Source: a virus. From it: a stretch of 36,169 bases of DNA. Under the pieces are notes generated by a model. It saw only the letters and a list, made by a program, of their open reading frames with translations. It was not told the origin of the DNA and did no database searches. Each line of letters begins with the position of its first letter. Position 1 is the stretch's first letter. The stretch is from IMG/VR virus record IMGVR_UViG_3300042380_000362, positions 1 through 36,169 of that record. One strand, given 5' to 3'. Of this stretch, positions 23,318-30,496 are shown piece by piece. The translations under genes were made by a program, and so were the position numbers.

Positions 23318-23992
23318 CTAAAAATCGCCGGTAAAGGGAACCCCGGGGCCTTGCCGTTGATTTTGGCGATTTTGAAGCGCTTCGGATTGCAAACCGGCCG
23401 CTTCGACTCGCCGGACATGATCCCAGAGCCCTTCGCGGGCTGGGTCCCAGTCTTCGGGGTCTCCCGGCTTGGGGATCGCCCACGCCCAAGACTCGGCAGT
23501 CTCGTCGGGCGGATCTTCACCGTGCTCAATCGCAAGAGCAGAGCGGCGCCGGAAGTCGTTGACGGATCGAACCAGTTCCGCGACCTCGCGGCGAATTTCA
23601 TTCATGCTCTTGCGCCAGATTCCGGTCTGATGACTGATCGCTCGGTCAACGAGATCGATCAAGTCGTCTCGCTGCGGCTGGGTCCAGCCAGCGGCGATCG
23701 CTTGCTTTACAAAGCCGTTGACTAGGTTTGTGTGCTCGGTGATGTTCTCTTGCCTCTGCGCCGAGAGTCCTCGCTGTAAGTCGCGAATGATCTTGATCAG
23801 CGCCGGGAGAGTTGGGAATTTTTCCGAGCCGGTAACGACAAGTTCGCGAATCGCTTTTTGAACTAGCTCGATCGGCTCGTACCTCAGGCCAGCAACGTAA
23901 ACCCGAATCGCCTCTTCCGTTGGTTGGCGCCCCCAGCTTGTGAACATTCCGCTTACGATTTCCGGTAGGTCGAAAATGCTTTCGTTAGTCAT
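23318..23992 (-). CDS. Putative helicase loader / replication protein (G39P-like)
   Basis: I use ATG 23992 (MTNESIFDLPEIVSGMFTSWG), with AAAGGG ten bases ahead. The N-terminal 70 residues (EEAIRVYVAGLRYEPIELVQKAIRELVVTGSEKFPTLPALIKIIR) match the pattern of the SPP1 G39P-type helicase loader/inhibitor, 'LPxxxxMFxxWxxxPxxxxVxxYxxxLxxYPxxLVxxAI'. The rest is helical and charged (RQENITEHTNLVNGFVKQAIAAGW; DDLIDLVDRAISHQ; EIRREVAELVRSVN). It is 19 bases downstream of the DUF1376 initiator-like gene, as expected for a loader paired with an initiator. No ATP-binding site is visible, so it is not DnaC-like. The loader call is an inference. Confidence 0.6.
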   Translation of the reverse strand: MTNESIFDLPEIVSGMFTSWGRQPTEEAIRVYVAGLRYEPIELVQKAIRELVVTGSEKFPTLPALIKIIRDLQRGLSAQRQENITEHTNLVNGFVKQAIAAGWTQPQRDDLIDLVDRAISHQTGIWRKSMNEIRREVAELVRSVNDFRRRSALAIEHGEDPPDETAESWAWAIPKPGDPEDWDPAREGLWDHVRRVEAAGLQSEALQNRQNQRQGPGVPFTGDF

Positions 23993-24010
23993 GGTCAAGT
24001 TTCCCTTTGC

Positions 24011-24952
24011 TTAGTTGCTTGCTTCAAAGTCGATCAACGGAACGGCGCTACTCAAAATCTTTCTTGCTTCGGCGATCGCATCGTGCTCGCTCAAGTTTAT
24101 CAGCCCTTCGATCTGCTTTGGACTCAGCCCGAGCATTTCGAGCTTGACTTTCAGGACCGCTTCGCGCTGGCGGCGCTCGTCGCGCTCGCGATAGGTTTCA
24201 ATTTTCACTTTTGCAGTTGCAACGGCTCCCGGCTTGCTGCTGTCTCGTTCCCAAGTTCTGACCGCTGCCCTCCAGTCTTTCATCGGGTTGCGGCCGACTC
24301 GCCAGCCGTTGGCGGTGTAGTAGTTCCAGAACCCATCGGCGTTGACGGTGTTGCCCCGCTCGTCGCAGTAGGCTTTAACCTCTTCGACTGTCGGCTTGCG
24401 AAATGGTTCCCGTGGCGCCCGTGTTTTGCGCGGCGGCTTTACCTCTGGGGGTGATGCCCCGAGCATCGCCGTTTGTGTCCCTGTATTATCTAAGAAAGAT
24501 CCTTGATGTTTATGATCTACTGAGACTGAGACTGAAGGCATGGCTGGAGCATATGCCCCGGCGATGCTCGGCGGATGCTCCGAGCAACGCGACTCGGGAG
24601 GCTTTGAGTCGTGCCGCGAATCATTCCAACGCCCCTTTGCCGCTGCTTTTGCTTTAGTCGATCGTGCTCGCTGCTTGTCGCGCTCCTCTTCGAGCCGCGA
24701 GTTGAAATAGAGATCGCCGTGGCGCTCAAACTTCGTTGCTGCAATGCCCGAGCATATGCTTGAGACATGCTCGGCGGATGCTCCGAGCATACCACCGCAA
24801 GCGTGAACATAAGCCGAGAGCGGGGAGGGGCCAGCCGCCCATTGGTAGCAGAGCATGCGCAAGTAAACGCCCTGCTGTTCAAACGTCAGGCCGATTGTTC
24901 CGAGCACCCACGCATCGGGGTAAAAGCTAAACGCCGGTGATTTCCTCGCCAC
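24011..24952 (-). CDS. DUF1376 replication-initiator-like protein
   Basis: Starts at GTG 24952 with AAAGGG seven bases ahead (313 residues). Residues 1-110 are a DUF1376 domain: SPAFSFYPDAWVLGTIGLTFEQQGVYLRMLCYQW, GPSPLSAYVHACGGMLG and FERHGDLYFNSRLEEERD, a winged-helix-like fold of phage replication initiators. Residues 110-185 form a variable linker. Residues 190-250 (TVEEVKAYCDERGNTVNADGFWNYYTANGWRVGRNPMKDWRAAVRTWE) are a second domain common in phage primosomal proteins. The C-terminus is a long charged helix region. It probably binds the phage origin. The gene itself contains two copies of a composite DNA repeat (see 24547-24586 and 24750-24790), a likely origin inside the initiator gene as in lambda O. 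Confidence 0.72.
   Translation of the reverse strand: MARKSPAFSFYPDAWVLGTIGLTFEQQGVYLRMLCYQWAAGPSPLSAYVHACGGMLGASAEHVSSICSGIAATKFERHGDLYFNSRLEEERDKQRARSTKAKAAAKGRWNDSRHDSKPPESRCSEHPPSIAGAYAPAMPSVSVSVDHKHQGSFLDNTGTQTAMLGASPPEVKPPRKTRAPREPFRKPTVEEVKAYCDERGNTVNADGFWNYYTANGWRVGRNPMKDWRAAVRTWERDSSKPGAVATAKVKIETYRERDERRQREAVLKVKLEMLGLSPKQIEGLINLSEHDAIAEARKILSSAVPLIDFEASN
24547..24586 (-). repeat. Copy 1 of a 40-base iteron-like composite repeat (candidate origin)
   Basis: GAGCATATGC (24547-24556), seven variable bases, then a 23-base block (24564-24586) starting ATGCTCGGCGG and ending CCGAGCA. The block is itself near-palindromic (TGCTCGG ... CCGAGCA). The same unit with the same seven-base gap recurs at 24750-24789. 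A related shorter element (GATGCCCCGAGCATC) is at 24453-24467. Confidence 0.55.
24750..24790 (-). repeat. Copy 2 of the iteron-like composite repeat
   Basis: GAGCATATGC (24750-24759), seven variable bases, then the 23-base block at 24767-24789 identical to copy 1. The two copies are read in different codon frames of the DUF1376 gene, giving different peptides (MLGASAEH versus SEHPPSIAG). DNA identity therefore cannot come from protein constraint, which supports a DNA-binding role. Confidence 0.55.
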
Positions 24953-24966
24953 CTGTCTGCCCTTTG

Positions 24967-24997
24967 CAAAAAAAGCCCCGGGCTGAAACCCGGGGCT
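24967..24997 (-). terminator. Rho-independent terminator
   Basis: The nine-base stem AGCCCCGGG (24974-24982) / CCCGGGGCT (24989-24997), loop CTGAAA, is followed on the minus strand by a run of seven T. It lies between the Dam-like gene (ending 25043) and the DUF1376 gene (starting 24952), ending the upstream early transcription unit. Confidence 0.85.
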
Positions 24998-25042
24998 AAC
25001 CGTTAAAAAAAGTCACAAACATATCAAGCCAGTCTTTTGCAA

Positions 25043-25498
25043 TTACAAAAGGGACAGCCCAGACTGGTTGGGGCTGGCTCCCCGATAGAACTCGATCAGC
25101 ATGCTCGGGAAAGGCGCCGCGCTTTGTGCGCCGACGAACGTGAGGCGTCCGCGCAAAAAAGTGATACGTCCTCGAACAGCCCAGTCGTGAAACCAAGCCG
25201 TGCAAGTCCGAGCCGGGACCAAGCAGACAACCAGATCAGCGTTGCTCTGGCTTTCCTCGTAGGCTTTCTGAATCCATCGTCCGATCCCGCGACCGTAAGG
25301 CGGATTCAGCCACACGCGACCGAACCAAGGCACAGCCAGAGCATCGTCGTCAATGCTGATAAAGTTCTCGCACTTACAATTTGACTTGCTTGCAGCGGCG
25401 TCCAGAGTGAACTGAAACCGACTGTTGAGCAGATCGAAAATCTCGCGGGGAGTTTCCCAGTCTCCCCGCTCGCTGGAGTAGAGAGCCCGGTTGATCAT
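25043..25498 (-). CDS. Dam-like DNA N6-adenine methyltransferase
   Basis: I place the start at ATG 25498 (MINRALYSSERGDWETPREI), in an ATGA overlap with the secreted-protein stop and with GAGG ahead; 151 residues. The pattern RGDWETPREIFDLLNSRFQFTLDAAASKSNCKCENFISIDDDALAVPW, then VWLNPPYGRGIGRWIQKA, is the phage DNA_N-6-adenine-methyltransferase (Dam) type, with NPPYG as the catalytic-site motif. These enzymes methylate adenine in short sites, often GATC. The window is very rich in GATC, which fits self-protection. Family size is normal. The stop codon is just before the terminator, and the gene closes the early operon on that side. Confidence 0.85.
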   Translation of the reverse strand: MINRALYSSERGDWETPREIFDLLNSRFQFTLDAAASKSNCKCENFISIDDDALAVPWFGRVWLNPPYGRGIGRWIQKAYEESQSNADLVVCLVPARTCTAWFHDWAVRGRITFLRGRLTFVGAQSAAPFPSMLIEFYRGASPNQSGLSLL

Positions 25499-25797
25499 CG
25501 CCACGACCTCACGCGACACCAAGAACCATCTGGATACTGCGCCCTCGCGTCTCCGGTCAAAGCCATGCCGCGCCGGGGTGTGCAAGTCGAGCAGTTGTAG
25601 CCGCCGAACCCCACGCCCTCAAAGCGACCGATCACCGGTCCAACGTGTCCGCGAATGTTCCGCGCGACCATGTATCTCGCTTCGGATTCGCATCGCTGTT
25701 GATCGGTTGTCGCGCCCTGCCAAACATCTTGCCCACTTACGCAATTGCAAAGGGACAAGTGTAGGCCAACCAAAAACAAAAACATAAACCTTTTCAT
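25495..25797 (-). CDS. Small secreted protein, 'FEGVGFG' type
   Basis: I place the start at ATG 25797 (MKRFMFLFLVGLHLSLCNCVSG), about ten bases after GGAG; 100 residues. The first about 22 residues are a signal peptide, with cleavage likely after VSG; two cysteines near the end make a lipoprotein possible but the lipobox is not canonical. The mature part, RCESEARYMVARNIRGHVGPVIGRFEGVGFGGYNCSTCTPRRGMALTG, resembles small secreted proteins I recall from planctomycetes ('...RYMAxxxIRGHxG..FEGVG(W/F)...'). That is the best clue to the host. The function is unknown. Presence in a phage early operon suggests an envelope-acting host-interaction protein. Confidence 0.65.
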   Translation of the reverse strand: MKRFMFLFLVGLHLSLCNCVSGQDVWQGATTDQQRCESEARYMVARNIRGHVGPVIGRFEGVGFGGYNCSTCTPRRGMALTGDARAQYPDGSWCRVRSWR

Positions 25798-29134: not shown

Positions 29135-30496
29135 TTATCTCGTCGCGACTGTTTTTCCAAACGGCGCGACTTCGGTTTCGCCCGGCGGCAGAACCGTAAC
29201 CACCGGCACGGCCGGGGCCTTGCTTGGGTAAGGCCCACAGCAATCGGTAAACATGATGATCCCGTCAACGTCGAGCCCTTCGACTTCCGCGAGCGCGGGG
29301 CGGAAGTCAGTACCCCCGCCGCCACGGCTTGCAATCGTCGGCTCGTCGCCGCTCGCTCGTTGCCACGTGTCTTGACTTTTGATCTTCGTGTCGTGGTAGA
29401 TGATCTCAAGCTCAGTCAGCGAGCCGATCTCTTCGACTAGCTCGCGGGCAAACGATGACCACCGGCTGAAGTGCTGAACGCATGACCCGCTGACATCGAC
29501 GACCAGCGCCAGCTTGTAGCCGTTGCGGCGTCGAGAGCCGGGGACATACACCTCGCCAAACGAACGACGACCTCGCCGAGTCCAGTCGGTTTCGCGTGTC
29601 CCTCCACGCCGCTCGCCGAGCATGTCGATCACGACATCCTGCCAGCGAGTCCCGGCCTCTGGCGTGACAAGCTCGCCGGTGTGCTCGAGTTCGACTTCGG
29701 CCGTCTCGGTCCCGATCCCCTTACCGCTCCCTGCGTTGGCCTGCGCTTCGGCGATCCGTTCGGCGACATCTTCGACGATTTTTTGAATCGCTTCCCGCAC
29801 CTCTTCGGCCGTCATCTCTTCGACCAGTTCGGGAGCGTACTCTTCGACCAAGCTGCCCGCCCCGTGGACCCCGTTAGCAGTCCCTCCGCCCGAGCCCGAG
29901 CCCGAGCCAGAGCCCGAGCCCTCGCCCTCGCCCTCGCCCGAGCCCTCGCCCTCGCCGGTGTCCCCGCCCTCGCCCTCGCCGGTGTCCTCGCCGGTGTCCC
30001 CGCCCTCGCCCTCGCCCTCCGACTCGTCGTCGCCGTCCGACTCGTCGTCGCCGTCTTCGGGTTCGGATTCGTCGAGGGCTTTGGCTTCGTGATGATAGTA
30101 CCCTTCCCAAGGCAACCCTTCGGGGAGACCGAGTTCGCTAGGCCAGCACCCATCGGCCGGTAGCTTGTAGCCAGCGTCTCGAACTATCGGATTGATCTCG
30201 CGGTCCATCGCTTTGTTGGCGGCTCTCGCGTCGAGATACTCGCCCGAAAGCATCCGTTCCGTGTGCCGAAATCGAACGTGCAAAACCTCGTGAACCAAGA
30301 GACCGATAACCTCTTCGACCGAGAGAGACTCGACGAACGCCGGGTTATACAAAATGACGACCCCATCCGTTGCCGCTGTCGAGACGCGAGAAGTCTCGAC
30401 GAGCTTGAGGCACTGGATAGCCGCCGCATCGGCAACCATGTCCGCATCGTTGCTAAAGAGCATTTTTGTGATTGCTGCCGTGACTTTGTTGTTCAT
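29135..30496 (-). CDS. HExxH metallopeptidase-like / VWA domain protein
   Basis: Starts at ATG 30496 with AAAGGGGTTTCAC ahead; 453 residues. Residues 60-80 hold HEVLH (69-73), the zinc-peptidase HExxH box within a helix (IGLLVHEVLHVRFRHTERML). A 60-residue E/G/S repeat linker (145-205) follows. The C-terminal domain is VWA-like: MIDAS Asp334-x-Ser336-x-Ser338 (LVVDVSGSC), Thr396 in GGGGTDF and Asp418 in MFTDCCG. This order (metallopeptidase-like plus VWA) is the DUF2201 type. Family knowledge links it with MoxR ATPases, and a MoxR gene lies in the same operon. The role may be protein remodelling; a conflict-system role is possible. Confidence 0.8.
   Translation of the reverse strand: MNNKVTAAITKMLFSNDADMVADAAAIQCLKLVETSRVSTAATDGVVILYNPAFVESLSVEEVIGLLVHEVLHVRFRHTERMLSGEYLDARAANKAMDREINPIVRDAGYKLPADGCWPSELGLPEGLPWEGYYHHEAKALDESEPEDGDDESDGDDESEGEGEGGDTGEDTGEGEGGDTGEGEGSGEGEGEGSGSGSGSGSGGGTANGVHGAGSLVEEYAPELVEEMTAEEVREAIQKIVEDVAERIAEAQANAGSGKGIGTETAEVELEHTGELVTPEAGTRWQDVVIDMLGERRGGTRETDWTRRGRRSFGEVYVPGSRRRNGYKLALVVDVSGSCVQHFSRWSSFARELVEEIGSLTELEIIYHDTKIKSQDTWQRASGDEPTIASRGGGGTDFRPALAEVEGLDVDGIIMFTDCCGPYPSKAPAVPVVTVLPPGETEVAPFGKTVATR
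29882..30064 (-). repeat. Low-complexity coding repeat (E/G/S linker)
   Basis: Hexamer-like GCCCTC / GCCCGAG repeats encode residues about 145-205 of the VWA protein (EGEGEGGDTGEG, SGSGSGSGSGG). The run is a flexible hinge. Repeated hexamers make it a hotspot for length variation. Confidence 0.75.

What the first reader, a model, noticed from the sequence alone, without database searches (positions are those of the whole stretch)
24453..24790. Candidate replication origin: a duplicated 40-base element inside the initiator-like gene, read in two different frames
GAGCATATGC, a seven-base gap and an identical 23-base near-palindromic block occur at 24547-24586 and 24750-24789; a shorter relative is at 24453-24467. 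The two copies are translated in different frames (MLGASAEH and SEHPPSIAG), so conservation must be at DNA level. The host gene has a DUF1376 domain and sits next to a loader-like gene, as lambda ori sits within O.
Basis: partly seen in the sequence, partly recalled or inferred. Interest (0 to 1): 0.75.

Follow-up and report, generated by a model that had tools for sequence, protein, structure and literature searches.

The report
Phage replication origin inside initiator gene
The repeated DNA blocks are very probably the virus's own start point for DNA copying, hidden inside the gene for the protein that recognises it; the same hidden layout recurs, with a different short DNA word in each phage group, across many unrelated phages.

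Summary
The repeat is real and far beyond chance. Both 40-bp blocks are built from GAGCAT half-sites in alternating orientation with identical spacing (17, 11, 7 bp), in all three codon frames. GAGCAT occurs 9 times in the first 600 nt of the gene, against 2.7 expected under synonymous codon shuffling (1 of 5000 shuffles reaches 9). Beside the second block lies the least stable 30-70 bp stretch of the 36-kb window (within 24472-24541); its codons are chosen for instability (0 of 5000 shuffles as weak).

Relatives repeat the plan. In 28 diverse DUF1376 genes, 12 share one hexamer between gene nt 131-230 and 291-460 (shuffle mean 1.4); in a later set 19 of 23 do (mean 1.9). Codon choice for a weak linker is seen in 23 of 32 DUF1376-like genes and in 30 of 43 genes sharing only the C-terminal module; other gene regions give 1-2. 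Lambda O and P22 gene 18, run as controls, show origin and weak tract at nearly the same gene positions.

Best reading: a lambda/SPP1-type in-gene origin with an extra iteron cluster. Binding and origin activity are inferred; the neighbour gene as helicase loader is unproven. New variant of a known kind.

The parts
24011..24952 (-). Initiator gene (P0001, 313 aa, GTG start): DUF1376-like winged-helix domain, long linker, C-terminal module NGWRVGRNPMKDWRAAVRTW
24683..24928 (-). Codons of the DUF1376-like winged-helix domain (residues 9-90), presumed DNA-binding part
   Evidence: Pfam PF07120 E = 8e-5, below the curated cut-off; AlphaFold model pLDDT 91, helices, beta hairpin 76-83 and a long helix 85-115
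24750..24790 (.). Iteron cluster A: four GAGCAT half-sites (+,-,-,+; spacings 17, 11, 7), with perfect palindrome ATGCTCCGAGCAT at 24778-24790; gene nt 163-203
24547..24587 (.). Iteron cluster B: the same half-sites and spacing (last one GAGCAA); gene nt 366-406, in the linker
24454..24466 (.). Single palindrome ATGCCCCGAGCAT beyond the unstable tract (one mismatch to the core palindrome)
24851..24856 (+). Isolated further GAGCAT half-site upstream of cluster A; role uncertain
24478..24537 (.). Candidate DNA unwinding element: least stable 60 bp of the whole window, gene nt 416-475
   Evidence: weaker than all of 5000 synonymous shuffles
24520..24535 (+). Short 6-bp tandem repeat (CTGAGA) at the edge of the unstable tract, like the 6-7 bp tandem tracts at this place in relatives
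   Evidence: relatives. On its own not significant in this gene (p = 0.22)
24203..24439 (-). Codons of the C-terminal module (residues 172-250), shared with phage proteins of many different N-terminal domains; presumed helicase/loader-contacting part
   Evidence: phrog_15768 E = 3e-24
23318..23998 (-). Downstream neighbour gene P0002; candidate helicase loader, unproven
   Evidence: sub-threshold Inhibitor_G39P match E = 0.26; AlphaFold pLDDT 46, uninformative

Best explanation
The region 24454-24790 is the phage's replication origin, embedded in its own initiator gene. The initiator's N-terminal winged-helix domain (DUF1376-like) binds GAGCAT half-sites in clusters A and B, and probably the single palindrome at 24454. 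The assembled complex strains and melts the adjacent weakest tract of the genome (24478-24537), and the C-terminal module brings in the replicative helicase, directly or through a loader. Shown here: the repeats, their DNA-level selection, the unstable tract and its DNA-level selection, and recurrence of the layout in relatives and in lambda O and P22 gene 18. Inferred: protein binding, melting, helicase loading and actual origin use.
For: GAGCAT excess at fixed protein and codon usage. Least stable 30-70 bp of 36 kb adjoins cluster B and is weaker than all 5000 synonymous shuffles. Two-cluster hexamer sharing in 12 of 28 DUF1376 genes against 1.4 expected, lost when zones are slid by 80 nt or more, and in 19 of 23 genes of a set fetched afterwards against 1.9. 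Codon selection for a weak linker in 23 of 32 and 30 of 43 genes, 1-2 in other regions. Of 23 loci found by the DNA pattern alone, 15 have it in or at the end of initiator-type genes and 2 in a DnaC-like loader. Predicted winged-helix fold. Lambda O iterons at gene nt 349-433 and weakest 60 bp at 438-497; P22 origin 353-497 and weakest 417-476; here cluster B 366-406 and weakest 416-475. Literature model: iterons plus A+T-rich tract within O (PMC6022878, PMC7466680) and within SPP1 gene 38 (PMC6316719).
Against: No binding or replication data. 16 of 28 DUF1376 genes fail the strict two-cluster test. The zones were chosen after seeing part of the first set, and most of the second set belongs to one subfamily. 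Cluster A overlaps a coding stretch (MLGAS) shared with L085, so part of its likeness between phages may be protein homology. No GC-skew reversal at the site. The hexamer test does not flag lambda O itself (p = 0.29), so it is blunt. The adjacent loader gene is unproven.
Confidence: 0.85

Rival explanations
1. The GAGCAT clusters are operators: the gene product or another phage regulator binds them to control transcription of the replication operon, and no origin lies here.
For: Palindromic half-sites with helical spacing are typical of operators; many initiators also regulate themselves (general knowledge).
Against: The sites lie 160-500 nt inside the gene, with no promoter match upstream of them; the one sigma-70-like match in 22-28 kb (24512-24485) lies downstream of both clusters and is below shuffle expectation. 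It does not explain the adjoining unstable tract under codon selection, in this gene and in relatives.
Confidence: 0.07
2. Only a low-complexity coding linker: repeats and A+T-richness follow from a disordered protein tether and drift, with no DNA function.
For: Such linkers are often repetitive at protein level (SVSVSV, TDTDTD); 6-bp periodicity alone can follow from dipeptide repeats, and in this gene it is not significant (p = 0.22).
Against: Synonymous shuffles keep the protein fixed and still do not reproduce the hexamers or the weakness. Cluster A lies in the folded domain. Half-sites are read in three frames, and several relatives have 7-bp tandem tracts, which dipeptide repeats cannot make.
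Confidence: 0.05
3. A mobile palindromic element or an RNA hairpin regulator that was duplicated within the gene.
For: The block is near-palindromic and present twice; cluster B sits in a tolerant linker.
Against: The core palindrome occurs nowhere else in the record. Relatives keep the two positions with other words, several of them direct and not palindromic (CGTTGA, TGCTTG), which neither a mobile element nor hairpins would do.
Confidence: 0.03

Closest known systems
Phage lambda ori within gene O (also P22 gene 18 and Stx phage O genes)
   Same: Binding repeats with inverted symmetry in the middle of the initiator gene, followed at once by the weakest tract, at nearly the same gene coordinates (PMC6022878, PMC7466680).
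   Different: Different initiator domain (DUF1376-like, no O-like PHROG match), different repeat word, an extra cluster A about 200 bp upstream inside the DNA-binding-domain codons, and a site beyond the unstable tract.
Phage SPP1 oriL within gene 38 (gp38 initiator, gp39 loader, gp40 helicase)
   Same: Direct repeats plus an A+T-rich unwinding element inside the initiator gene (PMC6316719).
YdaU/YdaV replication genes of the E. coli Rac prophage
   Same: DUF1376 protein beside a replication gene; unstable linker at gene nt 417-476 under codon selection (p = 0.025); the word TGTTCA appears in both zones.
   Different: Different iteron word; fails the strict two-cluster test; no paper on its origin was found.

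Membership tests
Origin embedded in a phage initiator gene (lambda/SPP1 type) | Several copies of a binding word inside the initiator gene, beyond coding expectation | tested here: met
   9 GAGCAT in 600 nt, 1 of 5000 synonymous shuffles
Origin embedded in a phage initiator gene (lambda/SPP1 type) | Adjacent easily melted tract | tested here: met
   Global stability minimum of the window at 24478-24537, codon-selected
Origin embedded in a phage initiator gene (lambda/SPP1 type) | Initiator with an N-terminal DNA-binding domain | tested here: met
   Predicted winged helix with pLDDT 91; PDB fold matches weak (best E 0.17), so the fold is met but DNA contact is not shown
Origin embedded in a phage initiator gene (lambda/SPP1 type) | Adjacent helicase-loader or helicase gene | tested here: inconclusive
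   P0002: sub-threshold G39P match; no informative fold
Origin embedded in a phage initiator gene (lambda/SPP1 type) | Initiator binds the repeats and the fragment replicates | not testable with these tools
   needs EMSA, footprint and a plasmid test
Lambda O protein family | Sequence match to O-like initiator families | tested here: not met
   no O-like PHROG among matches of P0001 at E <= 1e-3
DUF1376 (PF07120) | Score above the Pfam gathering cut-off of 30.1 bits | tested here: not met
   23.4 bits, E = 8e-5, residues 9-90 over profile 4-84; so it is called DUF1376-like here, although it aligns along its length with relatives that do pass

The most novel reading that the evidence does not exclude
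A very large class of phage initiator genes (DUF1376 proteins, and proteins with unrelated N-terminal domains sharing the NGWKVGRNPMKDW module) carries the origin inside the gene on one plan: iteron cluster A in the DNA-binding-domain codons, cluster B in the linker, then a codon-selected unwinding tract often made of 6-7 bp tandem repeats. The iteron word changes with the initiator. Origins and binding words of very many phages could then be read from sequence alone, and swapping the N-terminal domain would mean swapping origin specificity together with the protein.
Probability: 0.6. Interest if true: 0.68.

Novelty: new variant of a known kind. Interest (0 to 1): 0.58.

Why it matters
Origins of most phages outside a few models are unknown, and DUF1376 is still filed as a domain of unknown function. 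The data give it a concrete, testable role (origin binding), name the likely binding word for this phage and for several relatives, and show that synonymous sites in phage initiator genes are under selection both for repeated words and for duplex weakness. This gives a simple way to predict in-gene origins, and it explains the odd low-complexity linkers of annotated primosomal proteins.

Tried and rejected
P0002 as a proven loader: relative, family, PDB and structure searches gave nothing usable. Close DNA relatives of the region in the phage collection: none. A solved-structure relative of P0001 by sequence: none. Foldseek against PDB: only weak winged-helix and DnaD-N resemblances, best E 0.17. 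GC skew as an origin marker: no reversal at the site. The hexamer-count test alone is weak (12 of 35 genes at p < 0.05) and misses lambda O, so the conclusion rests on several tests together. GAGCAT pattern hits in a capsid gene and in unknown genes (L090, L092, L095) were treated as chance. Literature: no held paper pairs DUF1376 with an origin and YdaU is only mentioned in passing. The library is open-access only; Weigel and Seitz 2006 (Bacteriophage replication modules), which from memory surveys phage origins, could not be read.

Full report
Observation. The duplicated element is exactly as described and lies in the minus-strand ORF 24011-24952. It is not a plain direct repeat but an ordered set of GAGCAT half-sites (+,-,-,+) with spacings 17, 11 and 7 bp, present twice 203 bp apart, plus one palindrome at 24454-24466. 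Half-sites fall in all three codon frames. With the protein and its codon usage held fixed, nine copies in 600 nt arise once in 5000 shuffles (mean 2.7). No hexamer exceeded six copies per 400 bp in eight dinucleotide shuffles of the window.

Surroundings. The least stable stretch of the whole 36,169-bp record, for every window size from 30 to 70 bp, abuts the second block (within 24472-24541). The amino acids do not explain it: none of 5000 synonymous shuffles gives so weak a linker. So two features expected of an origin, iterons and an unwinding element, sit side by side in this gene, and both show selection at DNA level.

The protein. P0001 has a DUF1376-like N-terminus (23.4 bits, below the Pfam cut-off), matches phage primosomal proteins (phrog_9327, 3e-10), and residues 1-116 are predicted with high confidence (pLDDT 91) as helices with a beta hairpin followed by a long helix, read here as a winged helix. 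Fold matches are weak but include the DnaD N-terminal domain and ORC winged helices. The C-terminal module NGWRVGRNPMKDWRAAVRTW occurs in dozens of phage proteins with different N-terminal domains, as expected of a modular initiator. The next gene (P0002) cannot be called a loader on present evidence.

Relatives, first test. In 28 diverse DUF1376 genes I asked whether one hexamer, in either orientation, occurs at least twice in gene nt 131-230 and at least twice in 291-460. Twelve genes pass; synonymous shuffles give 1.4 on average and at most 5 in 300 rounds. Sliding both zones by 80 nt or more leaves 0-2; shifts of 40 nt still overlap the clusters and give 10 and 4. The zones were chosen after seeing some of these genes, so the test was repeated on 23 non-redundant genes fetched afterwards: 19 pass against 1.9 expected, maximum 6. 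These are mostly one subfamily and count as fewer independent cases. The words differ between phages: GAGCAT here and in L085, TTCGCA in Vibrio phage 1.052.A, CGTTGA in Pseudomonas phage PfDIW6, TGTTGA in Bordetella phage IFTN2, TGCTTG in an Acidobacteriota genome locus (L150).

Relatives, second test. Scanning IMG/VR for GAGCAT palindrome arrays by DNA pattern alone gave 23 loci. Fifteen arrays lie in, or directly at the end of, an initiator-type gene (13 by PHROG match or close similarity; L091 and L104 only by the shared AA.ARW/AA.GRW signature before the array), two in a DnaC-like loader, two in an HNH nuclease gene, four elsewhere. An initiator gene is a few percent of a phage genome, so this placement is not chance. 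The arrays are again read in several frames (APSM, SEH, MLGA, ARSI).

Relatives, third test. The linker is weaker than synonymous expectation in 23 of 32 DUF1376-like genes, against 1, 1 and 2 in other parts of the same genes. In 43 genes sharing only the C-terminal module, 30 show it just before the module, against 2 and 1 in flanking regions. In 39 of 46 such genes the weakest 60 bp of the gene falls within 150 nt upstream of the module (9.4 expected). The tract is often a 6- or 7-bp tandem repeat; the 7-bp ones cannot come from dipeptide repeats.

Known systems as controls. Lambda O (annotated iterons at gene nt 349-433) has its weakest 60 bp at 438-497; P22 gene 18 (annotated origin 353-497) at 417-476; the window gene has cluster B at 366-406 and its weakest 60 bp at 416-475. 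The layouts coincide. Published accounts describe iterons plus an A+T-rich tract in the middle of O (PMC6022878; PMC7466680) and repeats plus an unwinding element in SPP1 gene 38 (PMC6316719). One lambdoid Pseudomonas phage paper already notes repeats within its O-like gene (PMC8508860). What this gene adds is the second cluster A inside the DNA-binding-domain codons and a site beyond the unstable tract.

Mechanism. Most likely the initiator binds A and B, bends or wraps the DNA between them, melts 24478-24537 and hands the opened strand to the replicative helicase through its C-terminal module. Binding, melting and loading are inferred from the lambda and SPP1 models, not shown. The rivals (operator sites, mere low complexity, mobile or RNA element) each fail on at least one of the results above.

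Limits. The hexamer test is blunt and misses lambda's own degenerate iterons (p = 0.29); lambda's weak tract is likewise not significant against synonymous shuffles (p = 0.10). Not every DUF1376 gene passes the two-cluster test. Cluster A overlaps a coding stretch (MLGAS) also seen in L085. Related sequences inflate the counts. No experiment was possible. Host and completeness of this phage are unknown.

Noticed in passing
window 24974-24997 (-): A strong intrinsic terminator (AGCCCCGGGTTTCAGCCCGGGGCT then TTTTTT) sits just upstream of the initiator gene start at 24952, after the Dam-like methylase gene. Transcription into the initiator gene would need read-through or antitermination.
   Followed up: no
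L093:7328-7359 and L101:3421-3452: GAGCAT palindrome arrays lie inside an HNH nuclease gene (phrog_14314) in two phages, in the same coding style (HARSNAPSICSEHM); is this gene the origin or initiator locus there?
   Followed up: no
L094:6607-6643 and L097:4005-4041: GAGCAT array in the first codons of a DnaC-like loader gene instead of the initiator gene.
   Followed up: no
L099:10962-11007 and L103:3407-3442: Array lies just beyond the stop codon of a 122-aa protein that ends right after the AA.ARW signature: an initiator N-terminal domain without the usual linker and C-terminal module.
   Followed up: no
window 25038-25058 and 25742-25760: Two similar stretches (gcaattacaaaagggaca and gcaattgcaaagggaca) about 700 bp apart near gene ends; role unknown.
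   Followed up: no
window 29681-30300: The densest hexamer repeat of the window is a Gly/Glu-rich low-complexity segment in a DUF2201 (putative metallopeptidase/VWA) protein, next to an AAA ATPase gene.
   Followed up: no
L004-L083: The module NGWKVGRNPMKDWKAAVRTW is attached to many different N-terminal domains, with a short tandem-repeat linker just before it in most; it has no Pfam family match in P0001 and looks like a shared helicase-recruiting module.
   Followed up: partly
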